Source of the DNA: Bolinopsis microptera | Lineage: Eukaryota > Ctenophora > Tentaculata > Lobata > Bolinopsidae | Reading direction: 5' to 3' | DNA length: 64,000 bases | NCBI RefSeq assembly: GCF_026151205.1 | Contig: NC_087077.1 | Location: 18,824,975-18,888,974 of the forward strand | Shown: positions 2,242 to 21,330 of the stretch, one piece after another | Layout of the letters: each line of letters begins with the position of its first letter | Numbering within the stretch: the stretch's first letter is position 1 | Made by a program: the position numbers and the translations under genes | The notes under the pieces: model-generated | Told to the model about the DNA's origin: nothing | The model's input: only the letters and a program-made list of their open reading frames with translations | Databases searched by the model: none

Positions 2242-2405
2242 CACGTGGACAGCTGCAACCAATCAGAGCAGCAAACGGACAAAGTCACGTGTGCGGGTGA
2301 ATGACGGAGTAGGGTCACGTGACAGTGGTCATTAGAAGAGCAGACTGCGTTATTTTTACAGTGTATGCTATATGTACATGATATGCAGGAGTGTGCCGTC
2401 ACGTG
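2242..2405. promoter_or_regulatory. Cluster of four CACGTG E-boxes with a CCAAT box
   Basis: CACGTG palindromes occur at 2242-2247, 2286-2291, 2316-2321 and 2400-2405, with CCAAT near 2258, all within 165 bases. CACGTG is the binding site of bHLH-zip factors (MYC/MAX, USF, MITF/TFE). Only the last of the four lies inside the duplicated block and returns in copy B (about 10200). Which transcript it would control is not visible; the beta-subunit gene nearby ends towards it. Confidence 0.4.
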
Positions 2406-3654
2406 CCACGGCTCAGAATGATCCAGAAATTTGCAGACATTAAAAACTGCGAGGCTAGAGCTGCACGACATGCTGGACAAATTGCGGTGTAAGAGCAGAC
2501 TGCAGAGAGACTATCATAAAGTGAACTCCAGAACATGCTAGCTAAGACAAGATGACGATTAAGGTTTGAAACGATTTGTATATCAAATCATCGTTTCTAA
2601 CCTTAATCGAATGCTCTTTATGATAATATCTTTGCTCAAACTCTACGCTACAATGAATCCAACATGTCGTGCAGCTCTTGCCTCGCAGTTGTCTGCAAAT
2701 TTCTTTTTTATACCCTCAACAGTACTATCCTATAATATAACAAATAATTTCAGCTCGCTATGTAACCAGGCCGACAAGACCTGAATATCTTCAGCGTGAA
2801 CCTTAAAGTTAAAAGATTTTATTACCAAAGAAAACAATTGAATGACTAAACGTCGAATTTATGTTTTAGTAATAACTTGTATATCACAATATTACGATTT
2901 CAGACCTCGGACCAGACAATGGAAACTTTCTAAAACCCTTTTTACCGTGAAACGATTTCATATCAGAAAGTATTATACTCAACAATTGTAACGAGTTCTC
3001 AACTCCTAGATTACACGGGAACAAATCTGCTTCTTTACAATAACTATGCAAAATATGTATCAATCTAATTACGAATACAAATTGTTATAATGATTATGTT
3101 TACGTTCAAGTTCCCTACGCTTTACTATTTAAACTAGCATCCAAACATTTTATGATAGTTAATCCAACAAACGCGCACCATGACCATTAACAAATAACCA
3201 AAGCACTATGTACTACTAAATCCAATATCGCATTGGTATGAAAATAAAGCTCAAAATAACATCATTTCAATAAAGCGATAAATATACCGATTCAACTAAT
3301 AACTAACTAAAAATGCATGTATTTAATATTCAGTTCGGCTGGTGTTCAACTTTTGTTCAATCAATGATTCTTGAGAATGATAGATGAAAGAACTCAAGAA
3401 TTATTTTGTGACAATTTTTTGACCAACGAAAAATAATTATGGCTGCGAAAGGAAAGTTATATTATTTATCAATAGAAATCTAAAAAATGTCTATTAATGT
3501 TAATGGTGTTCAATAAATTAATATCATAATCTAGCTCATCATAATAGTAACCTATGTAATAATCAGATGATCACGAGAGTTTGTGTAGATCTTATCAGCA
3601 CGGTTAAGTTGCGACAAATCTCTTGCACCGACTCACTCCAAATCCACATCCAAA

Positions 3655-6600
3655 CTATTCATCGGCATTCGTGTCTTTTGAGTATCTGATTTCGAAGTTG
3701 GCGTCGCCTGAATCTTCGATCTTCTTCTCGTTGACGTAAGCGCTGCAATCAAGATAGGTTTCCAAAGAATCTGTCTCGCTCATTGCAGCTTGTTTTATCT
3801 CTGAGAAATTGATGAGTGAGAAGTGAGATGACAATTCTAATGAATTTAAAGTAGATTAGAGAATAGAAAAGTCAAGAAAATACATAAAAGTTAAAACTCC
3901 TAGACAGGGCCAGCGAGACAGATATCTTCAACAGAAAAACATGTCAGATAAAGAATAACTTACTGTTCAAGGTTATCTCGATAGCCTGCATGGGCTGCAG
4001 ACCATTCTCTGCCTTGGAGGTATAAGGGTAGTACGCTTTCAGTGCTGCAGCGATTTCGACTTCTTTCTGCATTTCCATATCGAACTGAAAATGATTGATA
4101 CGTGATTTACCTTTCAAATAATGATAAAATTATGAATAAAATCTGAGATTTTTATGGAAAACATAATCATCATGTGTGTAGTGTGTAGTTTTGTTACGCG
4201 TTGATTATTGAGCTCTCTTATCTCATCGCTTATCGGGGCTAGGTGGCCTAGTGATCAGAGCATCCGCCTTCTGCGCAGAAAGTTCAGGGTTCGAATCCCA
4301 GTGTCACCTAGCCTAGGGAGTAGCTAAGGAGTAAGGATCCATTGGATCTATGCGATCTTCTCGGTCGACTCAGCCGAATGATAAGAAACTTAATTTAGGG
4401 TTAAATGAGGACCTGAGGGGTACCTGTTGAAAGTTCAAGAAACTTCCTAGGATAACCCTTCAGTGAATACATTATCCCCCCATTATGGGAAATGTGGACT
4501 TTGACTCTACAATGTGGTCACGTGAATATTTGGGCATGTTTGCCGATGCTGCTAATGATCTTGGTTGTTGGGTTGAGGAAGTGATGAAGACAATAGACTG
4601 TGTAGTGATAAAGATAGTCATATTAGTATTACATTAGACAAGTTCAAGAAACTATATATAAGGACCTTTTAGTAAAGCACCTTTTTGATGCATTTTAGGG
4701 TATTGTTGTATATACGGATCTCTTTCTTAAAGCGGCAACAAAAATAGAGGAAATGAAAAGTGACATGATTTATGCTCAGAAAATTATTCAGTTGCAAGGC
4801 AAGGGGAACTCTTGGAGTTTGAACATAAAGACTAAAGAGCTAGATTCAGTCCAGAGAACCTTTAAAACCGCTATAGAAAATATTGTTCAAGCTGAGTCTG
4901 AGATTAAGTTTTACAGTGCTGCTGTAACAAAACGTTCCCCCAGCTCTGCCTCCACTTTCACGGCAGAGAACTCGAAGAAAGTAGTTCAGAATGTGGTAGC
5001 TGAAGAGGATCTCAGCAAAAACATGTTGATTTTTGGTCTCAAGGAGTATGCTCAGTATGCAGGAGAGAAACTCGGCAATACAATTTGTGATGTGTTTGAA
5101 CAAATGGCAGAGAAGCCACGCTTCGAAGCTGCTCGAATTGGGAATAAAGCTACTAAAAAACATAGGGCTGTCAAAGTATCATTTGGAAGCTCTAGCACCG
5201 TTCATCAGATACTGATTAAAGCTAAAGAACTCAGACTGTCTCAGTGTGTTAAAACTGTCTTTATTTCACCGGATCGGTCGCCGGAGGAGCGAGCAGTACA
5301 TAAACAGTTTGTTCTAGATTTGAAGAGGAAGGTCAAGGAAAATCCTAAAAGTAATCTAGGTAAACTATAGGTAAAAATATAATATTAATCATAAGCTAAA
5401 ATGTACTAATCTTTGTATTCTAAATGGGGAAAAAGAAGAAACATTGTCAGTCAGTCGAGAAAATTGTCAGTCAGGCTATATGGCAGCTTTGTAGATGTTG
5501 TGACTATGCTAGTAGTGGTCCCAGGCTTGCGACTGGAATTGCGGTGTTAAATCGATTTAATGGTACCAACGATCCACCTCCCACTTGTTGTTTGGTACTT
5601 AGCAATAATTAATATATACGTTATTTTATCAGGACATAATTTTTTGGCCATTTTATATGAACTCTTACACTTTATATTTACTGAGAATATACATGAATTC
5701 TGGAGTTTAAATTATTAATATATCTCTTATGTCACCATGCCAGCCGCTTTGAAGTCGGCAATTTTTATTTTTTTAATATTGGTTGTTGATATATATAAGC
5801 GGGATGTAAATGCTTTGCCTTTATTTCATTTCATTTTATTTCATACGTTTGTGTGAACCTAACAAATATATAGAGTTAAGTTTCCCAATTTCCCAAAAAT
5901 TTATAATTAGATGTACTCACTGGAGGGTCCAAGTTTCCAGATCCAGTTTTTCCCACGCTCCAATTGCAATCAAAAGACAACGTCTTTTTTTCTGGAGTCC
6001 AATTGTAAATCTGAATTATTGGATAGTTTGGTGAGAAAAATGGGTTATTGGTAGGTGCAGCTCTCCGTCAAGGTACTGTTGATTGTTAAACCAATTGATG
6101 TTACGTACTTACCATAATACTCGAATTAACATTTTAATTAACATTTTAATTTAATCACGAATAGCAAATCTAGAGAAATAGCTGTGAACAATTTTTATTT
6201 AGGTATTTAAACTTTTAAAACTAAAATTGTTCAAAAATACCCACGGGTACCCACCCTGTTAAGTCCAATATAGAAACATCCCACTTTATCAGAGTCTTTA
6301 TCGGAGTTGAAGGGTTTTGATTGGTTGTAACATTTTCCAAGGTTAGCTTCGCTCCAATCGAAAAATCCGACGCCCTTGTTATCCTTTGCAGCTGCAGAGA
6401 GAATAAACCACTTTTAAACAGAGCTGAGTATCGACAGAATTATGTTGTGGTTTTACAACATACAATTAAACCATGCTTCAAGATAATGAGAGATAAAAAT
6501 AAACGTATACAAATAAATTTATTATATTTACCATTTTTTTATTCAAGATATTTAAAAATTAAAATGAACGTATAAAAAATAAATTTACTGTATTTTTCTG

Positions 6601-8896
6601 CTAATTTGTCGGCTGCCACCCTGTACTTATTCCATTCTTCTTCTTTCTCGAAGTTCATGATGTACAAGTCTGGGGAAGGGGCTGCTAGCTCTGAAACAAA
6701 AATTCAACTCAACTTGTCATGAATGCAAATAGCAGAGCAAGCCAGAACCGTTATTATGCGATCTTGATCATATACTAGTGATCCATTTATTACTTCGCAC
6801 ATAAATTTATAAAAATTATAATAAATAAAATTCTAAAATGTATTACCTGCTTCGACATTAAAATCACACCCAACACCCAACAAAAATACGTTTAAGTCAT
6901 ACAAGTGAGACTCAAGTATGGAAAAATGAAATATGCCAGCCAATACAGTGGGCAGGCCACGTACCCTATGCCAGTGGGCAACCCCTAGCCCACTAGAGCC
7001 CTTAATTTGTTGTAAAATTGAGGTTAATAATTGGCTATTTGATCAGTTAACCTCACATATTACAATTTCTTAACAATTTGTTGCTCCAATCTCGAATACA
7101 AAAACTATAATCTGCCCTTAAGGTTAACATATTTTAACAAAAATCAGTCCTGTGCTGTGGCTCTCCTAAAAAATGTATTTACCACTTTTAAAACTTATCT
7201 TCTTCTAGTAGAGCTTTAAATTTAATATCCGTTTCATCTCAAAATTGAAACATCTGTTTCCGAGATAATTACAATCAAATGATACGATATGTAGCGATGT
7301 AACAGAATTCTTCCCCTGGCCCTAGCTGTTTTTACGAGGTAAATTATAGACAGTTGCGTGACGGCTATAGCTAGAACCTCATACCTTAGTTCCCAAAAAT
7401 TTGTGTGCAATTAAATTGAGCACAATTTATTTGAGCCCGAAAAATTTGGGCAAAAAATTTGAACTCATTTGGGCGACCGAAAATTTGGGCACAAATTCTT
7501 CGAAAAATGAACGATTTTCCACTAAAATTTCAGTTAGATATTTGCCTTAGTTCATTATTATTCCTTATTATTCCAGTCATTTTGCTTTCAATTTTAAGCA
7601 TGTAGGTGGTAGTCTGAGTTGTTTCACATTATAAAATTTACGATCTGCCCAGTAACTACTAAAAAATACAGTGATGATGGCACAGTACAAAATGATAGAT
7701 TTATACAATAGTGATATTTAGTCTCTCAATCAGATAGCATATTTAAAAGGGAGGCCAGATGACATAAGGAAAGGCTTTGAGAAGTCGGGTATAACTGATG
7801 CTTGTAGATCAGACTTTACGGTGGATGATAATCCATTTGCAGATCTTGTTTAAATCTGAAAATCTCTAGCTCTCCGTACCTCTAGCCATTTGTTTTATTA
7901 GTAGCTGTTAGCTATTCCAGTAATTTCTATTCATTTAAAATATAAGCCTTTTTAATTGGTCAAGCCATGAATGACAGATTAGAAAACTAAAATTTCAAAT
8001 ATTATTTCACTTGGATATGAAGAAAAAGCCATCTTTCTATAGATTTCAGGGCCACAGGCCAAATGCCAAAAGTTTGGTTAGCAAAAAATTTAGCAGACGG
8101 AAAAGATTAACGCAATTAATTTGGTCTGCAAAAAATTTGGGCGAGAGGCCCGCTCAAATTTTTTGTCGCCCAAATTTTTGGGAATTAAGGTATCTTAGCT
8201 TTCACTTTGGAGCAAAAAATATCTACATGACATTTTAGGACAAGGCCTTGAAGTACATGTGTGCCAAGTTACAAGGTCTCAATTTGTAAACTGTAAATGA
8301 TAGTTTTTTTTAAAACAAAATTTCATTTCAGGTAAATTTATCAACATTTTGGGATTTTAGACATGAATATCAAATTGCTTAACATGAACACCAGATTTGG
8401 ATTCACATACTAGGTTTGATGGTACGTCCGATAACTGTAGGCTTGTCATCGTCCAGGGTTTGCAGCATCACTATCAGGCAGACGGCGAAGAAAGCTGCCA
8501 AACAAGCGTAGAAGAAGAAGTAGAAGATTATAAGTTTTCCTGAAAATATAATCTCTTCGAATGCTTCCCAAAATTACCTACTATTATATGAACAGTGCAG
8601 CATTCCTGGTATTGACAAAAGCTACCACAAAATGTCATTCAGGTAGAAGCTGAAACTATTCTCCAATAATGTAAAAACTGATCAACAATTCTTTTTTTAA
8701 ATGTGAAATATTGTGGTAAAACCGATGAGAAGATATCAGTGTATACATGCTATGATGTATGATGAAATGTATGGTTTTAAAGTATTTTACCCCAGTCTTC
8801 TTTAGAGCGTGAGTGGATCAGGGACGTTCCAGCATTTTTGAGATACATGAGTGATGTTGATGGACCAGGATCGTCAATTGGATCATACTGTGGCAT
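3655..8896 (-). CDS. Na+/K+-ATPase beta subunit, copy A (7 exons, alternative first exon)
   Basis: Beta subunit of the plasma-membrane P-type Na+/K+ (or H+/K+) pump, a single-pass type II glycoprotein that matures and stabilises the alpha subunit. Exons by splice sites and phase: 8896-8791, 8539-8411, 6690-6589, 6391-6251, 6060-5921, 4084-3964, 3800-3655; all junctions keep frame and give 294 aa (human ATP1B1 has 303). Exon 2 codes for the membrane helix (KLIIFYFFFYACLAAFF), exon 4 for the family motif GCFYIGLNRV, exon 6 for KAYYPY, and exon 7 for the conserved LDCSAY. Cysteines fit the second and third of the three usual disulfides; the first pair is missing. N-glycosylation motifs NQS and NWS are present. 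The cytoplasmic start comes from a non-canonical exon, with an in-frame TAG just upstream of the ATG. The canonical first exon found in copy B is absent here. Expression from this start is not proven. Confidence 0.85.
4237..4510 (+). mobile_element. tRNA-derived SINE
   Basis: The head (4237-4313) looks like a tRNA: a perfect 7-bp acceptor stem (GGCTAGG with CCTAGCC), an A-box-like TGGCCTAGTGATCAGAGC and a perfect B box GGTTCGAATCC at 4288-4298. The anticodon loop would read TCT (Arg), but the anticodon stem has a mismatch and extra bases sit between the T arm and the acceptor, so it is not a working tRNA. The body that follows contains GACTCAGCCGAATGAT and has relatives at 9851-10030 and 16865-17045. 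It lies in intron 6 of the copy A beta-subunit gene, in the opposite orientation, and is absent from the matching place in copy B. Confidence 0.7.
4753..5370 (+). mobile_element. LINE ORF1-like protein (205 aa) in an intron
   Basis: An uninterrupted frame on the strand opposite to the host gene. Its second half matches the common ORF1 pattern of animal non-LTR retrotransposons: a NMLIFGLKE strand, a FEAARIGNK segment, KVSFGSSSTVHQIL and a PDRSPEERAVHKQ motif close to the end. This part of the family folds like an RRM and binds the element's RNA. The N-terminal third is helical and probably coiled coil. No endonuclease or reverse transcriptase follows, so this is a fragment. The frame also continues upstream of the ATG without an obvious start. 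A broken paralogue lies at 12250-12965 in copy B. Confidence 0.75.
7384..8190. mobile_element. 807-bp MITE with TA target-site duplication
   Basis: The terminal inverted repeats are CCTTAGTTCCCAAAAATTTG at 7384 and its reverse complement with one mismatch ending at 8190. TA flanks both ends (7382-7383 and 8191-8192). The matching site in copy B (near 14803) reads CCTCATATCTTAG without the element, which gives the empty site with a single TA. TA duplication is typical of Tc1/mariner superfamily elements. Inside are repeated AAAATTTGGGC blocks and no supported gene. It sits in intron 2 of the copy A beta-subunit gene. Confidence 0.9.
8791..8896 (-). other. Alternative first coding exon of beta-subunit copy A
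   Basis: It codes for 35 residues starting MPQYDPIDDPGPSTS and ending EDWG across the splice, with donor GTAAAAT in phase 1, which fits exon 2 exactly. It does not look like the canonical beta cytoplasmic tail (FLYNP..TVFGR..SSW) seen at 15771-15891. A pyrimidine-rich acceptor-like stretch lies upstream, so a 5' untranslated exon may precede it. Its sister in copy B (15547-15652) has lost the frame. Confidence 0.65.
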
Positions 8897-9195
8897 GATC
8901 TATGATCTAGCTATGAAAGTGTGAAAGGTGAAATGAATCGTTTGTATGAGTTGTAGATATGATGAAATGAAATGAAAAATAGCTACATGTCATTTTAGGA
9001 CAATACCTTGAAGTATACGTGTGCCAATTTGTAAACTGTAAAAGATAGTCTTTAAACAAAATTTCATTTGAAGTTTTCATTTACAATAGATTACATGTAA
9101 ACCTAAATTTCTGATGCACAATATCTCAAGAACAGAAACCTTTTTTCGATACCAATTCAAAAAATACTTTATTAAATTTTTTGTACAGTGCTTAA

Positions 9196-9540
9196 ATGTA
9201 TCATTTAGGAGATACTCTGAAAGACCTTCATTGGCTGCCCATCAGTTACAGAATTCAATACAAATTATTACTTCTTGTTTATAAATGTCTTAATGGTATG
9301 GGACCAGATTATTTAAGTACAATGTTGAAATTTGCTAATATAATTTACAATTATAATCATCTTATCTACTTGACAGAACCTAGGGTACATACACAGTATG
9401 GAGAGAGATCGTTTCAGAAAGTTGGCCCTAAATTATGGAATGAGCTGCCTCTTGAAATTAAGAACTGCATGTCGTTGGACTCTTTTAAAGTGTATCTAAA
9501 TACGTTTCTTTTCAAGCGTGCTTATGATATTCCTGAATAG
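9196..9540 (+). mobile_element. 3' end of a LINE (reverse transcriptase C-terminus)
   Basis: An open frame of 114 aa shows the usual tail of CR1/L2-like LINE polymerases: LHWLPISYRIQYKLLLLVYK, LTEPRVHTQYGERSFQ, then VGPKLWNELPLEIKNC and a final SFKVYLNTFLF before the stop. The rest of the element is missing upstream. It lies just outside the beta-subunit gene and is part of the duplicated block, with a degraded sister at 16018-16563. The element is 5'-truncated, as is usual for target-primed integration. Confidence 0.85.
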
Positions 9541-9850
9541 TTTCTTAAACTAATAAATACCTCTTTTAACCATAGAATTTTTAAATATTTTTATTGAAAA
9601 ATGCATACCCTTTATCTTGTTATTTAGTGCATCAAGTCTTTAAATTTGTTGTATGATGAAATTATTACTATAATTTGTATCTTATTCTGATGGCATCAAT
9701 CTACCTCAGCTCTGTCAAGGCTATGTCATTTAGACATCTAATTAAACTCCCTGTTGATGTGGTACACTCACAATATCCTAAGATAGTTGTTCACACCATC
9801 CAGGGGGCAGGGAGTAAAGACTTTATTTCTGTTGACCCTATACCAAGTGT

Positions 9851-10030
9851 AACCTAGACTAGTCTAGGGAATTAGCTCAGAATCCATTGGATCTTTGCTA
9901 TGTTGCACATCTGTGTTATGTCTCCTTGGTTGACTCAGCCAAATGATTGGATAACCGTAATTAAGGGTTAAATTAGGGGCCCTGCCAAGAGATAAGGAAT
10001 CTTGCTATGGTAGCCTTCAGTAGATCTACA
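9851..10030 (+). mobile_element. SINE body, headless copy
   Basis: This stretch resembles the body of the SINE at 4314-4480 (a CCATTGGATCT block, GACTCAGCCAAATGAT, GGGTTAAATTAGGGG) but has no recognisable tRNA head. It is shared with copy B at 16865-17045, so it was present before the segmental duplication. It could also be the 3' tail region of a partner LINE, since the LINE end lies 310 bases upstream in both copies. Confidence 0.5.
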
Positions 10031-11738
10031 TTCTACATCATCCTGTACATTGTAGTTTTTACTACATTTTAAACATTATTGTAGTATTATCTACCCTCTA
10101 TACCCTCTATACCCTCTTATTATTATATACCTTGATTGACACTTTTATACCCTGTACTAATCATATTACCCTCAGGGTTTGTTTGCAATCGAAAATCGTC
10201 ACGTGCCACGGCACAGAATGATCCAGAAATTTGCAGACTTAAAAACTGCAGCAAGCCAAGAGCTAGAGCTGCACGCAAGCTGGACACATTGCGGTGTAAG
10301 AGCAGAGAGACTATCATAAAAAGAACTCCAGGACATACCAGCTAAGACAAGATGACGATTAAGGTTTGAAACGATTTTTATATTAAATCATCGTTTCTAA
10401 CCTCCCTAACCTTAATCGAATGCTCTTTGATCGAACTCTACAATGAATCCAACATGTCGTGCAGCTATTGCCTCGCAGTTGTCTGCAAATTTATATTAAA
10501 TAATAGTTTTCATACCCTCAACAGTGCTATCCTATAATATAACAAATAATTTCAGCTCGCTATGTAACCAGGCCGACAAGACCTGAATATCGTATGATTA
10601 TTATTTCCCTATTTACGATCGGACGTGCACAGTGGTAAACATATTTGAATTTCATTCTGTTTTTGAGCTTTTTAATTTTATTCACGCGAGAAAACTATTA
10701 TATCTTCCTGACTGAAATTGTTGTCGAAGCGTGAACCTTAAAAGATTTTATTGCCAAAGAAAACAATTGAATGACTAAACGTCGAATTTATGTTTTAGTA
10801 ATAACTTGTATATCACAATATAACGATTTCAGACCTCGGAAACTTTGTAAAACCCTTTTTACCGTGAAACGATTTCATATCAGAAAGTATTATACTCAAC
10901 AATTGTAACGAGTTCTCAACTCCTAGATTACACGGGAACAAATCTGCTTCTTTACAAAAACTGTGCAAAATATGTATCAATCTAATTACGAATACAAATT
11001 GTAATAATGATTATTCTTACTCCAAGCTCCTCTACGCTTTACTATTTAAACTAGCATCCAAACATTTTATGATAGTTAATCCAACAAACGCGCACCATTA
11101 ACAAATAACCCAAGCACTATGTACTACTAAATCCAATATCGCATTGGTATGAAAATAAAGCTCAAAATAACATCATTTCAATAAAACGATAAATATACCG
11201 ATTGAACTAATAACTAACTAAAAATGCATGTATTTAATATTCAGTTCGGCTGGTGTACAACTTTTGTTAAATCGATGATTCTGAGAGTGATTGATGAAAG
11301 AACTCAAGAATTATTTTGTGTTAATTTTTTGACCAACGAAAAACAATTATGGCTGCGAAAGGAAAGTTATATTGTTTATCAATAGAAATCTAAAAAGTGT
11401 CTATTCACGTTTATAATTCTTGTTCAATTTCGAACGAAAAATCGGTACAAGTAAACAAAATGCTATCGATAGTTTTGAAATCCGTAATTACAAAATCGCC
11501 TTCAATCTTAGTACACAAAATAAAATCATTATAAATAGGTATATATAATAGTAGAATTTAGAAAACTGATCAGTTTTGCAATGTTAATGGTGTTCAATAA
11601 ATTAATATCAAAATCTAGCTCATCATAATAGTAACCTATGTAATAATCAGATGATCACGAGAGTTTGTGTAGATCTTATCAGCACGGTTAAGTTGCGACA
11701 GATCTCTTGCACCGACTCACTCCAAATCCACATCCAAA

Positions 11739-14700
11739 CTATTCATCGGCTATCGTGTCTTTTGAGTATCTGATTTCGAAGTTGGCGTTGCCTGAATCTT
11801 CAATCTTCTTCTCGTTGACGTAAGCGCTGCAATCAAGATAGGTGTCGAGAGATGCTGTCTCGTTCATTGCAGCTAGTTTATCCTCTGAGAAATTGATGAG
11901 TGAGATTCAACAATTCTAATGCATTTTAAGTCTTAAAGAATAGACAAGTCAAGAAAATACATAAAACTTCAAGACAAGGCCAGCGAGACAAATATCTTCA
12001 ACACAAAAACATGTCAGATAAAGAATAACTTACTGTTCAAGGTTATCTTGATAGCCTGCATCGGCTGCAGACCGTTATTTTCCATGGAGGTCCAAGGGTA
12101 GTACGCTTTCAGTGCTGCAGCGATTTCGACTTTTTTCTGCATTTCCATATCGAACTGAAAATGAATGATACGTGATTTACCTTTCAAAGCTCGTACAAAA
12201 TTTTTAGAAATCTTAATTGAAAAGTTGGCCCTTTTTGGCCCCTTGCCCAGATTTTACGCCGAGTCTGAGATTAAGTCTTACAGTGCTGCTGTGTCAAAAC
12301 ATTCCCCCAGCTCTGCCTCCACTTTCACGGCAGAGAACTTGAAGAAAGTAGTTCAGAAGCGCCGGCTCCTCGCCCACCCATCGCGATCGCCCACCCCTTT
12401 TAAAAATCCTGCGCACGCCCCTGTTGGGAAAGTAACTTAGCCGCTGCAAGCGAAGCGAGCGGGCCACAGAAGGGTCTGAAAATGGGTTTGGGAGGAAATT
12501 TTTAATTATGTGGATATGGGTATCTGCATGCTTATAAACAGTAAAGGCTGGGGTCCCCAGGTTGTATGGCATATGATAAAATACGCCATCACGGATCGGG
12601 AAATTGAGCGGCCATCCACAAAAGAAAAGCGGCTGCATTTCTTGTTGGTCTCAAGGAGGATGCAGATACAGGAGAGAAACTCGGCGATAAAATTTGTGAT
12701 GTGTTCGAACAAATGGCAGAGAAGCCACGCTTCGAAGTTGCTCGAAATGGGAATGAAGCTACTGAAAAACATAGAGCTGTCAAAGTATCATTTGGAATCT
12801 CTAGCACCGTTCATCAGATACTGCAGTTCAAAGCTAAAGAAATCAGACTGTCTCAGTGTTTTAAAACTGTCTTTATTTTACCGGATCGGTCGCCGGAGGA
12901 GCGTGCAGTACATTTAAACAGTTGGTTCTAGATTTGAAGAGGAAGGTCAAGGAAAATCCTAATATTGTATACGTTATTTAATCAGGACAGGTAGAATTTG
13001 TGAGATAGATGAGTGAGATATTTAAATACAATAGGGGCAGCTCTAGCTGGTCAGACCCCACAATATCATGAAATAACGTCAATAATGTCATTATTTGCGT
13101 ATAAAGCCGCTTATTGGATATAATGTCGACGTTATGCCGCTTATAGGATATAATGTCAATACAATGTCGCTTATAGGATATAATGTCGATACAATGTCGC
13201 CTTTTTGGATATAATGTCGATACAATGTCGCTTATTGGATATAATGTCGATGTAATGTCGCTTATAGGATATAATGTCGATACAATGTCGCTTATTGGAT
13301 ATAATGTCGTATAATGTCGTATAATGTTGTCTAAAGACAGTGACATTGTGGGGTCTGGCCAGGTGCCCAAATAGAATATAGATATTACATAATTTTTTGG
13401 CCATTTTATGAACTTTTACACTTTACATTTACTAAGAATATACATGCATTCTGGCGTTTAAATTATCACTTTGTCACAATGCCAGCCGCTTTGAAGTCGG
13501 CAATTTTTATTTTTAATAATATTGGTTGACAGTTGTTGATATAAGAGGGATGTAAATGTAAATTTCATTTCGTTTAACTTCCTACGTTTGTGTGAACCTA
13601 ACAAATATGTAGAGTTAAGTTTCCCAATTTCCCAAAAATCTATAATTAGATGTACTCACTGGAGGGTCCAAGTTTCCAGATCCAGTTTTTCCCACGACCC
13701 ATTCGCAACCGAAAGACAACGTCTCGCCTTCTTCTGGAGCCCAATCGTAAATCTGAATTATTGGATAGTTTGGTGAGCAAAATGGGTTATTGGTAGGTGA
13801 AGCTCTCCGTCAAGGTACTGTTAATTGTTAAACCAATTGATGTTACGTACTGACCATAATACTCGAATTAAAATTTTAATTGATCACGAATAGCAAATCT
13901 AGAGAAATAGCTGTGAATATTTTTTATTATTTAAAACTAAAAATTGTTCAAAAATACCCACCCTGTTAAGTCCAATATAGAAACATCCCACTTTACTTTC
14001 ATCACTGTTTTTGGGGTATTGTGACTCGAAACATTCTCCAAGGTTATCAAAGCTCCAATCGAAAAATCCGTCGCCCTTATCTTTGTTACCCTCTGCGGAC
14101 AGAATAAACCATTTTTAAAGTGAGCTGAGTATCGACAGAATTATGTTTTGGTTTTACAACATACAATTAAAGCATGCTTCAAGATAATTAGAGATTAAAA
14201 TAAACGTATACAAATAAATTCATTATTTACCATTTTTTAATTCAAGATATTTAAAGATTAAAATGAACGTATAAATTATAATAAATTTACCGTATTTTGC
14301 TTTTAATGCGTCGGCTGCCACCTTGTATTTATTCCATTGTGCATCGTTCTTGAAGTTCAAGATGTACAGATCTTGGAAAGGGGCTGCTAGCTCTGAAACA
14401 AAAATTCAACTCAAGTCATGAATGTATTAAAAAGCAGAACAAGCCAGAACTGTTATTATGCGATCTTGAATTTGATAATAATAATAAATTTAAATTTAAT
14501 AAATTGATTCAAAGGGAAACAAATTCCTCTGTAAATTTAATAACACCGCTTTTAAGATAAAACTTTTACTCAGCTTGAGCAGTGTTAAAACTTGTCATCC
14601 CAGAAAATAAAATGAATACGTATGTATTATTTACCGCCTTTAAAACCCATATTCTTCTGGTATCTAGCTTTAAATTTAATATCCGTTTCATCTCAAAATT

Positions 14701-15891
14701 GAAACATATATTTCTAAGATAATTACAATCAAATGATATGTAGCGATTAACAGAATTCTGCCCCTGGTCCTAGCTGTTTGTAGACAATGACGGTTAACCT
14801 CATATCTTAGTTTGTGCTTTGGAGCAAGAAAATTAAAAATATGTACATGTCATTTTAGGACAAGGCCTTCAACATGTGTGCCAAGTTACAAGGTCTCAAT
14901 TTGTAAACTGTAAAAGATACTTTTTAAACAAAATTTCATTTTGAGGTGTTCATTTACAACAGAATTACATGTAAACCTAAATTTCTGAGGCACAATTTGA
15001 CCAAAACCCATAATTTGGTAGAGTGGACCGCTGCTAGTATCTCTTTTTCCAAAACAAAAGGAAATGATATTAATTTGAAAAACTGTCTGCAAATTCTACG
15101 GCATTAGGAAATTTTCGACATCAACCTTTTGGGATTTTAGAGATGAATATATTGAATATCAAATTAGATTCACATACTAGGTTTGTTGGTACGTCCGATA
15201 ACTGTAGGCTTGTCATCGCTCAGGGTGTTCAGCATCACTATCAGGCAGACGGCGAAGAAAGCTGCCAAACAAGCGTAGAAGAAGAAGTAGAAGATTATAA
15301 TTTTTCCTGAAAATATAATCTATTTGAATGCTTCCCAAAATTATCTACTATGAACAGTGCAGCATTCCTGGTATTGACAAAAGCTACCACAAAATATCAT
15401 TCAGGTAGAAGCTGAAGCTATTCTCCAATAATGTAAAAACAATTCTTTTAAAGATGTTGAAATATTGTGATAAAACTGATTCGAGAAGATATCAGTGTAT
15501 GCTATGATGTATGATGTAATGTATGGTTTTAACTTGTATTTTACCCCATCGAATGTTCTTCAGAGCGTGAGCGGATCAGGGACGTTCCAGCATTTTTGAG
15601 AATGAGTGATGTTGATGGACCAAGATCGTCAATTGGATAGAACTGTGGCATGATCTATGATCTAGCGACTAGCTATGAAAGTGTGTGAAATGAATCGTTT
15701 GTATGAGTTGTAGATATGATGCACACATTGACTTCAATGTCACTAATAACTGAATATCATAAGAATTTACCCCAACTAGAACCCCCTCTGCCAAAAACTG
15801 TGTGATCATCTGGGTTGTAGAGAAAAGTACAAAATCCTTTGAATCCCTCAACATATTTGTTGGGTTTCTTTTCTTTCACTTCTTCACCCAT
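11739..15891 (-). CDS. Na+/K+-ATPase beta subunit, copy B (7 exons, canonical first exon)
   Basis: Same protein family and role as copy A. Exons: 15891-15771, 15306-15178, 14392-14291, 14092-13958, 13802-13660, 12154-12034, 11884-11739; all phases agree and give 298 aa. Exon 1 codes for a classic beta cytoplasmic tail (GFCTFLYNPDDHTVFGRGGS, then SW), joined to the helix KLIIFYFFFYACL. Exon 4 ends with GCFYIGLNRV; exon 6 has KAYYPY; exon 7 has LDCSAY. Cysteines for disulfides two and three are kept, the first pair is missing, and an extra cysteine stands in NNPFCSP. An NET glycosylation motif in exon 7 is private to this copy. An in-frame upstream ATG at 15942 crosses several acceptor-like CAG/TAG sites, so 15891 is preferred as the start. 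This copy looks like the regular pump subunit. Confidence 0.88.
12250..12965 (+). pseudogene. Broken LINE ORF1 relic in copy B
   Basis: Two stretches match the intact relic at 4753-5370: about 12260-12345 (the SPSSASTFTAEN region) and about 12637-12965 (from the VGLKE-like region to the PDRSPEERAV motif). Between them, about 12346-12636, is unrelated sequence with higher GC. Frameshifts follow near the end (an extra T in the codons after ERAV). It cannot make protein. Confidence 0.75.
12987..13389. mobile_element. MITE-like insertion with inner minisatellite
   Basis: Copy A reads straight from ATCAGGACA to TAATTTTTTGG (near 5632), while copy B has about 400 extra bases at this point, flanked by ACA on both sides. 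Inside, CTGGTCAGACCCCACAATATC (near 13049) and its inverted partner, ending GGGGTCTGGCCAG (near 13363), form 21-bp inverted repeats with two mismatches. Between them lie about seven copies of a 30-bp unit (CGCTTATAGGATATAATGTC plus ten more bases, 13107-13330). Whether the inverted repeats are the true ends is open. The open frames across it on the minus strand are only the repeat read in phase. Confidence 0.7.
15547..15652 (-). pseudogene. Frameshifted alternative first exon, copy B
   Basis: Sister of the exon at 8791-8896. It keeps the start (MPQFYPIDDLGPSTS) but has a 3-base deletion and, next to the donor, 4 extra bases (GAACATTCGATGGG against GAAGACTGGG). The exon therefore ends in phase 2 instead of phase 1, and joining to exon 2 would reach a stop in that exon. 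No other GT donor nearby restores the phase. Confidence 0.65.
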
Positions 15892-16017
15892 GTCTGGAAA
15901 CCCTAGAACCCTAGAATGATAACGAAAAATAAGAGAAAACAATCAACTTGATAAATTTTGAATAAATTATTTGTCAACTAAATTCTTTATAAAATTTTGT
16001 GTACACTTAAATTGATC

Positions 16018-16563
16018 ATTTAGGAGGTACTCTGAAAGACCTTCAATCTTTTTGGCTGCCTATCAGTTACAGAATTCAGTACAAGTTATTACTTCTTGTT
16101 TATAAATGTCATAGTGGTATGGGACCAGATTATTTAAGTATTCAAATTTGGTAATTATAATAATCGTATATACTTGATTGTATGTGGCAAAGAAGTGTTT
16201 TATAAATCTTAATTCCACTGGGAGGTTTGATTAGGTTTTTAAAATAGGATAATGTTTTGATAATTTTTTGAAAAATATTGTATCTGATAAATAATTAATG
16301 TTGGTGGGGTTATATTTATTATATATTTTTCAGTGCAATGGTATTTTTTAGAGATGTGTTTGATGTGATGTCATAAATTTTACTTTACTTTACTTGACTG
16401 AACCAAGGGTAAATACACATGGAGAGAGATCGTTTCAGAAAGTTGGCCCTAAATTATGGAATGAGCTGCCTCTTGAAATTAAGAACTGCATGTTGTTGGA
16501 CTGTTTTAAAGTGTATCTAAAAACGTTTCTTTTCAAGCGTGCTTATGATATTCATGAATAGTG
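16018..16563 (+). mobile_element. Degraded LINE 3' end, copy B
   Basis: It matches 9184-9540. The reading is broken by about 200 unrelated bases (16190-16395) and small deletions, but the final part up to the stop (WNELPLEIKNC) is kept. It is a paralogue created by the segmental duplication, not an independent insertion. Confidence 0.8.
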
Positions 16564-16864
16564 TACTGCCTCTTTTAATCAAAGATTGCTTTTCTCAGGT
16601 TTTCTTGAGTCCTGAAGTGTTTTTGTTGAACACCTGTGTGCATTTTAAGTTGTTGTTCCACTGTAATATAAACTTTTAAATCAATATTATTATTTCTATC
16701 TTATTCGTATGGCATCAGTCTACCTCTGTCAAGGCATCTGTCATTTAGACATCTAATTGGGTCCCTCTGTTGATATGGTACACTCACAATATCCTGAGAT
16801 AGTTGTCAACACCATCCAGGGAATAAAGACTTTATTTTTGTTGAGAGACTACTATACCAAGTGT

Positions 16865-17045
16865 AACCTAGACTAGTCTAGGGAATTAGCTCAGAATCCA
16901 TTAGATCTTTGCTATGTTGCACATCTATGTTATGTCTCCTTGGTTGACTCAGCCAAATGATTGGAAAACCGTAATTAAGGGTTATATGAGGGGCCCTGCC
17001 AAGATATAAGGAATCTTACTAGGCTTAGGGTAGCCCTCAGTAGAT
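16865..17045 (+). mobile_element. SINE body, headless copy in copy B
   Basis: Paralogue of 9851-10030, with the same CCATTAGATCT and GACTCAGCCAAATGAT blocks. It marks the right end of the duplicated block. Confidence 0.5.
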
Positions 17046-17374
17046 CTATGTTCTACATCATCCTGTACACTGTAGTTTTGACTTCATTTTAAACATAATT
17101 GTAGTATTATCAACCCTCTAGTCTATACCTTGATTGCCACTACTTTTTATACCCTGTACTAATCATATTACCCTCAGGGTTTGTTAGCAATCTAAAACCT
17201 TTTACACATTGAATACTTGTTTCATTGGTTCGGTTCCATTTAGATTGCTTACTAACATGGTAATTAACAATTTCACCAAAGCAGTATCTGACCAATGCAA
17301 AATAAGTACATATATGAACAAATCTCAGACAGAACAGATTACATGACTCCGCAATGGCAACCTTAGATGAACTG

Positions 17375-17420
17375 TACAAGGATACAAGGATACAAGGATA
17401 CAAGGATACAAGGATACAAA
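17375..17420 (-). repeat. 8-bp microsatellite, LINE 3' tail
   Basis: Nearly six copies of GGATACAA. It lies about 130 bases beyond the stop of the minus-strand LINE frame at 17548-18039. On that strand it reads as TTGTATCC repeats at the 3' end, which is the usual place for the terminal short repeat of CR1/L2-like LINEs. Confidence 0.7.
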
Positions 17421-17547: not shown

Positions 17548-18039
17548 CTATAGCATTATGCATTGGCCAGTATTTGAGTGGAAATCTGGGCTCTTATAGT
17601 AGGCTGTAAAATTTTCGTTCACAGAGAGAATTGAATGGATTGCTCTTGCTGTGGCAGTAAATTTTGTAGGGTCTAGTGTTTTATCGGATAGCAAACCGGC
17701 TAGGTCAGTAATATTTTTGGGATGGAAGTTAAATTTTTCTCTAACTGAGGAGTAGAGTAAACAGTCAGTTAGAACATGAATTTCGTCCTCAATAGGCTTA
17801 AGCCCCTTGCTGAAAAAGCAAAAAGTGCACCATCGATGTTCTCTTGGTACTAGGGGGGTTTCGTAACGGCCCCTCTCAATGTAAAGATTGTGGCAGCTAA
17901 TACGAAACCTTGTTAAGCTTTTCCGAGCATCGGGGATCTTAACCACTCCTAAGTATGTTTCTGGTTCATAATCATGTTTAATTTGATTGTAGAATTCTAA
18001 TTTAGGTGAGGATGCCTTGGCAGATTTCCAGGTATCCAC
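17548..18039 (-). mobile_element. LINE polymerase C-terminal fragment (163 aa)
   Basis: The frame matches the C-terminal part of non-LTR retrotransposon polyproteins: a KLEFYNQIKHDYEPETYLG block, KSLTRFRISCHNLYIERGRY, and a zinc-binding-like CTFCFF ... EDEIHVLTDC arrangement. The reverse transcriptase core is missing upstream. The short-repeat tail at 17375-17420 fits its 3' end. The intact frame suggests a fairly young insertion that was truncated on arrival. It belongs to a different family from the fragment at 9196-9540. Confidence 0.75.
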
Positions 18040-18305
18040 AAGGTATATACCTTCTATCCATTCTCTTGCTACTCCAAGTCCCCTAAGATATCTGGTAAAA
18101 AGGTCCTGCTACTTGCTAGTTATATATAAAATATATTTATGTTTGCTTTAATTGATACTAAATAAAATTGTTGTTTTCTTGAAATTGTTGTTTTCTTGAA
18201 TACCCTCGATTAACCAGATGAACCGGCGTTGGACAGCTTCCAACTCAAAGATGATTTGCCAACTACCATGAGCAGCAGATGGATTAAACTGTTTGAATCT
18301 AAACC

Positions 18306-18779: not shown

Positions 18780-21330
18780 CGATAATACTACAATATGGTA
18801 ACAATTCGAGATTTGGGTTAGAAATTATAAAAATCCCTTTGTGATAGATGTAGCTCATCGACATGTCTAGATCTGCTATTAGTAAAACAAATTTAGTAAA
18901 ACAATTTTCACTGCACTACTACTTGTTCATCCTCTCTCTCCTAGAATCATCAAAAACCAATACAATAAAACATCTTGTACCTTTTTCGACTCCACGGAGT
19001 CCCTGATGGACTTTTGTTAAAAATTGGACCAACCTTTCTTTCTCGAAATGTATCTTAATGTACTTCACTACTTTATTATAATATTAAGATAAAACAAATC
19101 ATGTGAAGATATTACTACGAAATAGATTTATATTTATTATACCAAATTTATTTTTATTATACCAAATTGTCCATGATATTAAAACTAGCCGTGCTGATGG
19201 TTTTAGATTTTTATGTTGTAAGTATTTTAATGTGAAGCGTTTACTTCTCCCCCTCAGCAAGACTATTAGAATAATGATAATAATTGTAAAATGACGTAGT
19301 ATATTATATAACAGTTAATCTATATGATTAATGATATAGATATAAATGTTGAATGTTGGATGTTGTAGAGCAATTTAAAGAGTATTGGTCCACAGGGGTC
19401 TGTAAAAGCCGTACATGCACTTGGGTCCTTATATCCTTATCCTTGTCACTCTCAATTGGATTCAGTTCACGCAAAACATGAACATTTAGACGTACACCAT
19501 ACACATTGACACGATATTTATTAGAAAGCAAAAAGTATAAAATAATACGTGCGTGCGCGGCTTGGGCCGGACTGCATAAGAATTGATGCGTGTAGGAGCT
19601 GGAGTACGCTTGTTCATAGATAAATGAAATATTGCATTGTAAATATTTAAAATTGACGATATATTATGATCTAATAGTAAATTTTACAAAGCTAGCTTTG
19701 GATTAACTGGGCCGCGCTCAGCCTGTCATTCCGCCAAATCTTTATGTTAATGAACATAATAGCCTGGGGTCCTCAGGTAAGCTTTGGATTTGGGTATAAT
19801 TGTAATTTATTTTTAAAAAACCACGAATAGTTTTAAATTTACTCTGTCGTACTAACAAGTTAATTCTGTTTTCAAGAATGCGCAGCTTTGGCGGCCAGTT
19901 CCCACTGCGAGCTGTTTACTCAAAATGCGCGAACACGTCAACATATAAAAATTTGGCGCCCTACAAACTTCGGTAGAACTTCATTTGCAACTGATTGCTC
20001 GTATTTTACTGCGCGCAGCGTTTGCCTTGTGAAGTTCAACACCAAACATATATACTGTTAATATTCATACTTGATACTGCATTTAATCTTTAATTTTTGA
20101 TGGAAATACGATGTACATTAAATTTCTGGTTTTTAGTATGACTATGCCGTATATATAAAACAGTTTAATGCATAATATAAGTAATACGACTCTTACATCT
20201 TATTTAAAACATGTTACGTTGTAAATCAATGTTTGTATGTACATTACTATTGTTCCGTATTGAAGTTGATTCATTCGGTTGCGGTTGCTTTTATTTTTCT
20301 TTTAAAATATACTAACCTTTTGCATTGTAATTTACTAAACAAAAAATTGTTTATATGAATTATTCATTATAACTTTGTAATTTTATCGCGCGCGTCTTTA
20401 TATTGTATATGTTGTAAGTTTTAGTTATTGATAATTTTAAAATTAAAACTCACAATGATATCACAAATAAATTGATTGCAATCACAAAGTTTTAATTTCA
20501 CCAAGTCATTAGCCCAGAATCATAATATATAAATGATAAAATAAACTTATACTTTCATTACACTTATTAAAATGTAACACTAAAAGCACGTATCGCGCAA
20601 AATATTTGATTAATATTAGTGCCACCTATTTAAGTATGAAGAAACATAAATTTCGAATTAATAATCTGGAATCCCATATTTTCGGTATTTGGATTTGTGA
20701 TTACATTCGTTTAATGTTTTAAAAAAATTCTTAAATTGGTAAATAAACATAAAAATTGTCAAATAATGCGCGGCTCAAAAAATAAATTCTATTTTTTTGA
20801 TATTTGAATTCCTCCGCAAGCGTTACGTTACCAAGGGTTATTGTTGTAATGTTTAATCTATGTTCTATTCCTTGTAGTGTTCCGTTTGTGGTTGAAATTG
20901 GACCGGTCTGTTTGTTCACGATTTCGCAACGGAATATGGTAGTACTATCTAAGACCCTTACGATCATATTGTTGCCAACTTTGTTTCGCTGCCATACTGT
21001 ACTATATTATTGGAATGAATGGAGACTTAACTCAAAGCGTGTGTAGGCCCGCTCTGCGTTCCCACAGGGATGCCCGATAAATAAAGATTTTTCACATTGT
21101 CCATTCGTGAACTGCAATCGTACGGTATGTGTGCTCTTTTGTACAACTTTAATACTCTCATGCCATGAATATTTGTGCACAAAAAAATTGTTAGAAATTC
21201 GAACTTACTTTTTACTGTCGTAATCTGTTAATTTAATCTAACCGTCCTCACTTTCAGATTGCTATAAACTTGTCTAAATAGAAACGTTTCTCGGGTCAAC
21301 TTCACGCTAGATAACTGCATTCTTCGCCTA
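18780..21330. other. AT-rich intergenic sequence
   Basis: No supported gene. A short exact tandem pair (TTGTTGTTTTCTTGAA) lies just to the left, near 18170-18200. A promoter-like cluster is at 19944-19960. Small open frames at 19328-19531, 20731-20967 and 20804-21046 show no recognisable domain and overlap each other on both strands. Confidence 0.5.
19944..19960 (+). promoter_or_regulatory. TATA box next to E2F-like site
   Basis: TATAAAA (19944-19950) is directly followed by ATTTGGCGCC, which fits the E2F consensus TTTSGCGC. Downstream sequence (19970-20030) is locally more GC-rich than its surroundings. It could start the possible transcript whose exons appear at 21338-22134, but no link is visible. 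Confidence 0.3.

What the first reader, a model, noticed from the sequence alone, without database searches (positions are those of the whole stretch)
8791..15891. Reciprocal loss of alternative first exons in duplicated Na+/K+-ATPase beta genes
The ancestral gene seems to have had two first coding exons: a canonical one (kept at 15771-15891 in copy B) and an alternative one (kept at 8791-8896 in copy A). In copy A the canonical exon is gone; in copy B the alternative exon has 4 extra bases at the donor that break its phase. Each paralogue would thus make a beta subunit with a different cytoplasmic tail. This is the pattern of duplication-degeneration-complementation, here acting on alternative N-termini rather than enhancers.
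Basis: partly seen in the sequence, partly recalled or inferred. Interest (0 to 1): 0.8.

Follow-up and report, generated by a model that had tools for sequence, protein, structure and literature searches.

The report
Sodium-pump beta twins, different first exons
In what looks like a comb-jelly genome, two neighbouring copies of a sodium-pump beta gene carry different possible first exons; this looks real in the DNA, but without RNA or a related genome it is not shown that both were ever used.

Summary
The window carries two head-to-tail Na+/K+-ATPase beta genes (minus strand). Copy B has the canonical first exon (15771-15891) with the GRGGSSW motif shared with beta-1 of solved structures. Copy A lacks it: that spot is mostly a ~150-bp dispersed repeat. 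A instead has a 106-nt, phase-compatible ATG exon (8791-8896). B's version is 107 nt (four bases more near the donor, three fewer upstream), so out of phase. A third copy about 320-355 kb away, split in two in the assembly, has a canonical exon identical to B's and the same off-phase alternative exon.

Copy A is not an old pseudogene: exons 2-7 are open, and their only two indels against B are multiples of three (about 13 indels expected at the intron rate). Amino-acid-changing divergence exceeds intron divergence. Its own first exon is therefore probably used, but no RNA was available.

The strict reciprocal-loss (DDC) story is only partly supported: the copies show just two states and no outgroup, so the exon may have become coding only in A. 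Splitting alternative exons between duplicates is already known (fish mitf). The genome matches published figures for Bolinopsis microptera except scaffold number; the one-base frame difference needs checking in reads.

The parts
8791..8896 (-). Copy A, alternative first coding exon ex1a, 106 nt, phase 1, MPQYDPIDDPGPSTSLMYLKNAGTSLIHSRSKEDW-G
8411..8539 (-). Copy A exon 2 (membrane span)
6589..6690 (-). Copy A exon 3
6255..6391 (-). Copy A exon 4 (+6 nt against B; the exon that differs most)
5921..6010 (-). Copy A exon 5 (-3 nt against B)
3964..4084 (-). Copy A exon 6
3655..3800 (-). Copy A exon 7, to the stop codon
8965..9161 (-). Stretch of copy A at the place of B's canonical first exon; 8970-9122 is a dispersed repeat
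15771..15891 (-). Copy B canonical first coding exon ex1c, 121 nt, phase 1, carries GRGGSSWG
15545..15651 (-). Copy B alternative exon ex1a, 107 nt, open from its ATG to the donor but out of phase with exon 2
15178..15306 (-). Copy B exon 2
14291..14392 (-). Copy B exon 3
13962..14092 (-). Copy B exon 4
13660..13752 (-). Copy B exon 5
12034..12154 (-). Copy B exon 6
11739..11884 (-). Copy B exon 7, to the stop codon
2397..10195 (-). Tandem unit holding copy A
   Evidence: aligned blocks of the two units meet at about 10196
10197..17197 (-). Tandem unit holding copy B

Best explanation
A tandem duplication made copies A and B of a Na+/K+-ATPase beta gene (shown). In A the canonical first exon is gone, with a dispersed repeat now at its place (shown; mechanism inferred). 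Copy A is nevertheless maintained as a protein gene (strongly indicated). It most likely starts translation in the exon at 8791-8896, spliced 8791 to 8539, and makes a beta subunit whose short cytosolic tail lacks the conserved GRxGxSW motif but keeps the tryptophan next to the membrane span (inferred). B uses the canonical exon (inferred from conservation). B's alternative exon cannot encode an in-frame tail as assembled. Whether the ancestor used both exons, or A's became coding only after the loss, is left open.
For: Exons 2-7 of A all open with GT-AG introns. Two indels between A and B in exons 2-7, of 6 and 3 nt, against 12.8 expected at the non-coding indel rate; P = 2.6e-4 for two or fewer, 5e-5 for no frameshift. 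In one search's BLAST alignment the exon gaps appear as 3, 7 and 1; the codon alignment gives 6 and 3. Phase-1 donor, TGG codon at the same place as in the canonical exon, ATG, GC and codon score. No canonical first exon in A. Pfam PF00287 at 84.8 bits for the spliced A model and 104.1 for B, cut-off 23.3.
Against: No transcript, no relative. Other donor-like sites make phase-1 ORFs too (50 of 917). A differs from both B and C at 4 of 166 sites in and just above the exon (P 0.0017 at the mean non-coding rate), but six other non-overlapping 140-site windows have as few or fewer A-B differences (one of them overlaps exon 2), so its conservation is not exceptional. The exon differences between A and C that I read off the alignment change amino acids. 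A small splice-site model gave the A donor 4.8, inside its training range of 2.4-11.0 but low, and two other donor-like sites near by score higher. A tail without the GRxGxSW motif is unusual.
Confidence: 0.55

Rival explanations
1. Strict DDC: the ancestral gene had two first coding exons and the copies lost one each (the reader's reading; a sub-case of the best explanation, so the odds overlap).
For: The ORF from the ATG is open through the donor in all three copies, A, B and C. Read by hand: with the one extra base set aside the B/C exon is again 106 nt and ends S-W-G like the canonical exon, and A then differs by one codon gained and one lost (letters). B's version differs from C at 4 of 107 sites, where C agrees with A, against 0 of 250 in ex1c plus ex2, as if unconstrained in B.
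Against: Only two states in the genome, no outgroup. Codon score of the B and C versions is unremarkable (reached by 15% and 14% of the null). Exon change beyond the intron rate between A and the others is not what a passive split predicts.
Confidence: 0.3
2. Gain, not loss: ex1a was intronic or 5' untranslated sequence and became a coding first exon only in A, rescuing a copy that had lost its canonical exon (the other sub-case).
For: Both B and C are off-phase, so off-phase may be ancestral; a net change of one base separates the lengths.
Against: An open 35-codon ORF, coding-like GC and a TGG at the canonical place would then be coincidences.
Confidence: 0.25
3. A borrows B's start: the two genes are one transcription unit and B's canonical exon 15771 is spliced to A's exon 2 at 8539, so both products have the conserved tail.
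For: Same strand, B upstream, phases match (ex1c ends in phase 1). Would keep the conserved motif.
Against: Needs skipping of six B exons over 7.2 kb. A carries its own copy of B's 5' flank (9367-10195 against 16391-17197). No RNA evidence either way.
Confidence: 0.15
4. Recent pseudogene: A lost its start recently and is decaying.
For: dN/dS between A and B is 1.47 with bootstrap interval 0.87-2.77, so not significantly different from 1.
Against: No frameshift or stop in exons 2-7 while about 13 indels are expected; amino-acid-changing sites differ more than non-coding ones (77.5 of 574 against 273 of 4145, Fisher P 4e-8), which decay alone does not give.
Confidence: 0.12
5. Assembly artefact: the one-base frame difference in B/C is an error, or the copies are haplotype mix-ups.
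For: If the species is Bolinopsis microptera, the assembly is wtdbg with gap closing, haplotig purging and pilon polishing (passages). The third copy is split and out of order, and its 5' part is 97.8-100% identical to B.
Against: The same 107-nt exon is in both B and C, which differ at four other sites in it. A and B are 7-8% diverged in non-coding sites and abut as a tandem, which is not allelic.
Confidence: 0.15

Closest known systems
[quoted passage not shown] 2002; only the title seen, in the reference list of PMC1890551)
   Same: Duplicates keeping different alternative exons (from the title; details recalled)
   Different: There the unduplicated gene's isoforms are known (recalled); here they are not, and the gene is a pump subunit in a tandem pair
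Fungal SKI7/HBS1: an alternatively spliced gene and duplicates (PMC3597508, title and start of abstract)
   Same: One alternatively spliced gene retained in many species; title speaks of subfunctionalisation
   Different: Ancestral splicing documented across species; not alternative first exons of a membrane protein
Drosophila nervana 2 forms Nrv2.1/Nrv2.2 with different cytosolic tails (recalled; one search shows only an antibody named Nrv2.1)
   Same: A Na+/K+-ATPase beta gene with alternative N-termini
   Different: One gene, not split between duplicates
Oncopeltus fasciatus beta-x (PMC9110512, passages)
   Same: A divergent beta paralogue without the usual cytosolic N-terminal domain
   Different: There the tail is missing; here it would be replaced

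Membership tests
Na+/K+-ATPase beta subunit (Pfam PF00287) | Profile match above cut-off | tested here: met
   B 104.1 and A 84.8 bits, cut-off 23.3, on spliced models
Na+/K+-ATPase beta subunit (Pfam PF00287), copy B | Pre-membrane motif GRxGxSW (usual feature, not part of Pfam's definition) | tested here: met
   GRGGSSW in B against GRTGGSW in beta-1 of 7yzr
Na+/K+-ATPase beta subunit (Pfam PF00287), copy A | Pre-membrane motif GRxGxSW (usual feature, not part of Pfam's definition) | tested here: not met
   With ex1a the tail ends SRSKEDWGK; A is filed here by its profile match, not by its tail
Na+/K+-ATPase beta subunit (Pfam PF00287) | Paired ectodomain cysteines (three disulfides in vertebrates, recalled) | tested here: inconclusive
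   A and B each have four cysteines after the membrane span, room for two pairs; no structure made
Na+/K+-ATPase beta subunit (Pfam PF00287) | Assembly with an alpha subunit at the membrane | not testable with these tools
   needs expression
Duplication-degeneration-complementation of alternative first exons | Ancestral gene used both exons | not testable with these tools
   no relative's genome or RNA can be searched; copies give two states only
Duplication-degeneration-complementation of alternative first exons | Complementary state in the two copies | tested here: met
   At sequence level: ex1c absent in A, ex1a off-phase in B; that these are losses is not tested
Duplication-degeneration-complementation of alternative first exons | Both copies transcribed, each from its own exon | not testable with these tools
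   no RNA reads
Duplication-degeneration-complementation of alternative first exons | Otherwise conserved products (no gain of function) | tested here: inconclusive
   Branch between A and B/D: exons 3-5 changed at 47 of 323 sites, their introns at 43 of 737; dN/dS A-B 1.47, interval 0.87-2.77

The most novel reading that the evidence does not exclude
In an early-branching animal lineage a sodium-pump beta gene had two first exons, perhaps each fed by leader trans-splicing; after tandem duplication they were parted between the copies, and the copy with the unusual tail (no GRxGxSW motif) then changed its outer domain and glycosylation sites under positive selection, becoming a new kind of beta subunit.
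Probability: 0.2. Interest if true: 0.6.

Novelty: new member of a known kind. Interest (0 to 1): 0.4.

Why it matters
If copy A is translated from its own first exon, a beta subunit can work, or has taken on another job, without the N-terminal motif that copy B shares with the beta-1 subunits of solved structures. That makes the role of that motif testable. As a case of duplicates sharing out alternative N-termini it would add an example from a lineage far from those known, but it is not a new principle.

Tried and rejected
Outgroup beta genes inside the genome: two weak hits outside the cluster (C1, E 0.028; C13, E 0.6) were fetched; their translations read to me as chance, by eye and without a further test. 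Species by COX1: no match in the assembly. Species by 18S: one search failed on the machine's side and was not repeated. Species by assembly figures: 264.65 Mb, C1 of 26,206,493 bases and repeat hits on thirteen contigs, C1-C13 (one search also hit C43) match 265 Mb, 13 chromosomes and a largest of 26.2 Mb for Bolinopsis microptera (table in PMC11797021, passages). Against: that table gives 346 scaffolds and G000 has 232 contigs.

A splice-acceptor model from 17 acceptors (12 distinct) was too small to rank the sites before either first exon. Trans-splicing: 56% of Iso-Seq reads in a related comb jelly carry a leader (PMC8527503, one section read), but its leader core is not in this window, and its two genome matches do not exceed the four of the reversed control, so it is only a possibility here.

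Selection: the excess of amino-acid changes over silent ones is not significant (one-sided binomial P 0.27 on the A branch); the excess over introns is. I first read this as A alone speeding up. That does not hold: with three copies and no outgroup the A branch includes the stem to B and D, gene conversion between B and D would lengthen it, and B too exceeds its introns over exons 3-7 (27 of 590 against 21 of 1055, P 0.004; A 57 of 590 against 51 of 1055, P 2.5e-4; D 9 of 590 against 23 of 1055, P 0.46). I kept the odds, since they rested mainly on the lack of an outgroup.

Paper searches on comb-jelly beta subunits (1 of 1 listed), nervana 2 (12 of 34 listed, 2 of 2), beta N-terminal splicing (10 of 17), mitf (10 of 20) and reciprocal loss (10 of 15): nothing listed reports this gene pair; only listings and starts of abstracts were seen, plus passages of the papers named above.
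Full report
What is there. The window (C6:18824975-18888974 of the held genome) holds two Na+/K+-ATPase beta genes in tandem on the minus strand, B upstream and A downstream. The duplicated units are 10197-17197 (B) and 2397-10195 (A) and meet at about 10196. B's seven exons join into an open 280-residue protein. Its first exon encodes FLYNPDDHTVFGRGGSSWGKIIIFY, which aligns with [25 protein letters not shown] of the beta-1 subunit of 7yzr. A's exons 2-7 are all open; with ex1a at 8791-8896 they join into 276 residues. Pfam PF00287 scores 104.1 bits for B and 84.8 for A, cut-off 23.3. In the genome the family, protein and DNA searches find beta exons only in this cluster and in a second place on the same contig; two weak hits elsewhere looked like chance. 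Those searches score only the best candidates.

The first exons. B's canonical exon is at 15771-15891. A has nothing like it: BLASTN, a genome-wide DNA search (the 2 matches are B and the third copy) and a protein search find none there. Where B has 15722-15979, A has 8965-9161, most of it (8970-9122) a repeat with 40 listed matches, 146 candidates, many of them partial. One search lists three matches to this exon in the genome, so it does not look like a repeat.

A third copy. At C6:18485732-18489915 lies a 5' fragment, C: canonical exon and exon 2 identical to B's, and an alternative exon of 107 nt with the same off-phase donor, differing from B at four sites. At 18496551-18513411 lie exons 3-7 of a further copy, D, all open. 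On the minus strand D precedes C, so the two do not form a gene as assembled. In the alignment D covers B up to 14782 and again from 19136; C covers 15119-17378 of what D lacks. The stretch 19136-19563 is a repeat family (296 candidates, 40 scored), but the D flank is its best match, 95% over the full length, the next 86%, so the flanks look inherited together. C and D were therefore probably one gene, split by rearrangement or misassembly (inference). Mixed identities (exon 4 of D 99% to B, exon 3 90%) point to gene conversion.

Is A alive? Between A and B there are 74 gaps in 4145 aligned non-coding sites, 17 of 74 multiples of three. At that rate 12.8 are expected in 718 coding sites; the codon alignment shows two, of 6 and 3 nt. 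That is strong evidence that A's frame has been kept. Divergence is skewed to amino-acid changes: 77.5 of 574 non-synonymous sites, 13.5 of 143 synonymous, 273 of 4145 non-coding (another alignment gives 308 of 3735 non-coding, against which the test was not run). dN/dS is 1.47 (bootstrap 0.87-2.77, 93.3% of 1000 above 1), so positive selection is suggested but not proven by that ratio. With D as third copy, changes on the branch between A and B/D are 47 of 323 in exons 3-5 and 43 of 737 in their introns (P 7e-6); B's own are 13 of 323 and 14 of 737 (P 0.055), D's 7 of 323 and 14 of 737 (P 0.81). Over exons 3-7 both A (P 2.5e-4) and B (P 0.004) exceed their introns. The A branch is unrooted and includes the stem, so the speed cannot be given to A alone. 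Exon 4 stands out (32 of 131), and there B and D are nearly identical. N-glycosylation sequons differ: NQS, NWT, NWS in A, NET in B, NWS and NET in D.

Is A's alternative exon a real first exon? For: phase, ATG, open frame, TGG before the split codon as in the canonical exon (3 of 917 donor-like sites in the window have all this, one of them the canonical exon itself); GC 0.46 against 0.27-0.35 in the flanks and a non-coding mean of 0.33; codon score equal to the canonical exon's and reached by 3.6% of 83 ATG-started open non-coding stretches. Against: no excess conservation over the best other windows; the GC-rich null is reached by 14%, and one true exon of A scores below zero; no transcript. 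Since A seems alive and must start somewhere, I put 0.55 on this exon, with B's canonical exon spliced onto A as the chief alternative.

Loss or gain? The copies offer only two states, A on one side and B/C on the other. Read by hand with the one base set aside, the B/C exon would again end S-W-G, and A would differ by one codon gained and one lost; this favours an exon that was once coding everywhere. But off-phase could equally be ancestral. No genome of a relative could be searched. DDC is thus possible, not shown.

Setting. The assembly figures fit Bolinopsis microptera apart from the number of scaffolds, an inference; that genome was built with wtdbg, gap closing, haplotig purging and pilon (PMC10232365, passages). 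In the comb jelly Hormiphora many mRNAs carry a trans-spliced leader (PMC8527503, section), so two first exons need not mean two promoters; this was not shown here. Duplicates sharing out alternative exons are known from fish mitf (title seen) and fungi (start of abstract). The case is a likely new member of a known kind.

Noticed in passing
L001 (C6:18485732-18489915) and L002/L003 (C6:18496551-18513411): A third beta copy is split into exons 1-2 and exons 3-7 in reversed order on the same strand; rearrangement or misassembly.
   Followed up: partly
window 3655-6690: Ectodomain exons 3-5 of copy A differ from B more than the introns between them, and the N-glycosylation sequons differ.
   Followed up: partly
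window 7382-8193; L001 at C6:18486043-18487205: Related sequence sits in intron 2 of A and in intron 1 of C (98% over 244 and 95% over 461 bases), probably a recently active short transposon.
   Followed up: no
window 4699-5370 and 12480-12917 (+ strand): ORF remnants, transposon-like to my eye, lie antisense in intron 5 of A and B, with related sequence in D, so the insertion probably predates the duplications.
   Followed up: no
window 17548-18108 (-): ORF that looks like the end of a non-LTR reverse transcriptase (recalled likeness); a closely similar peptide occurs in L007 on C13.
   Followed up: no
window 13100-13319 (-): Short tandem repeat array in intron 5 of copy B.
   Followed up: no
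window 4237-4309 (+): tRNA model match just over threshold (29.4 against 29 bits, E 0.046); a relative lies near C, so possibly a tRNA-derived repeat.
   Followed up: no
copies A and B, ectodomain: Four cysteines after the membrane span in each, against six in vertebrate beta subunits (recalled): one disulfide may be missing in this lineage.
   Followed up: no
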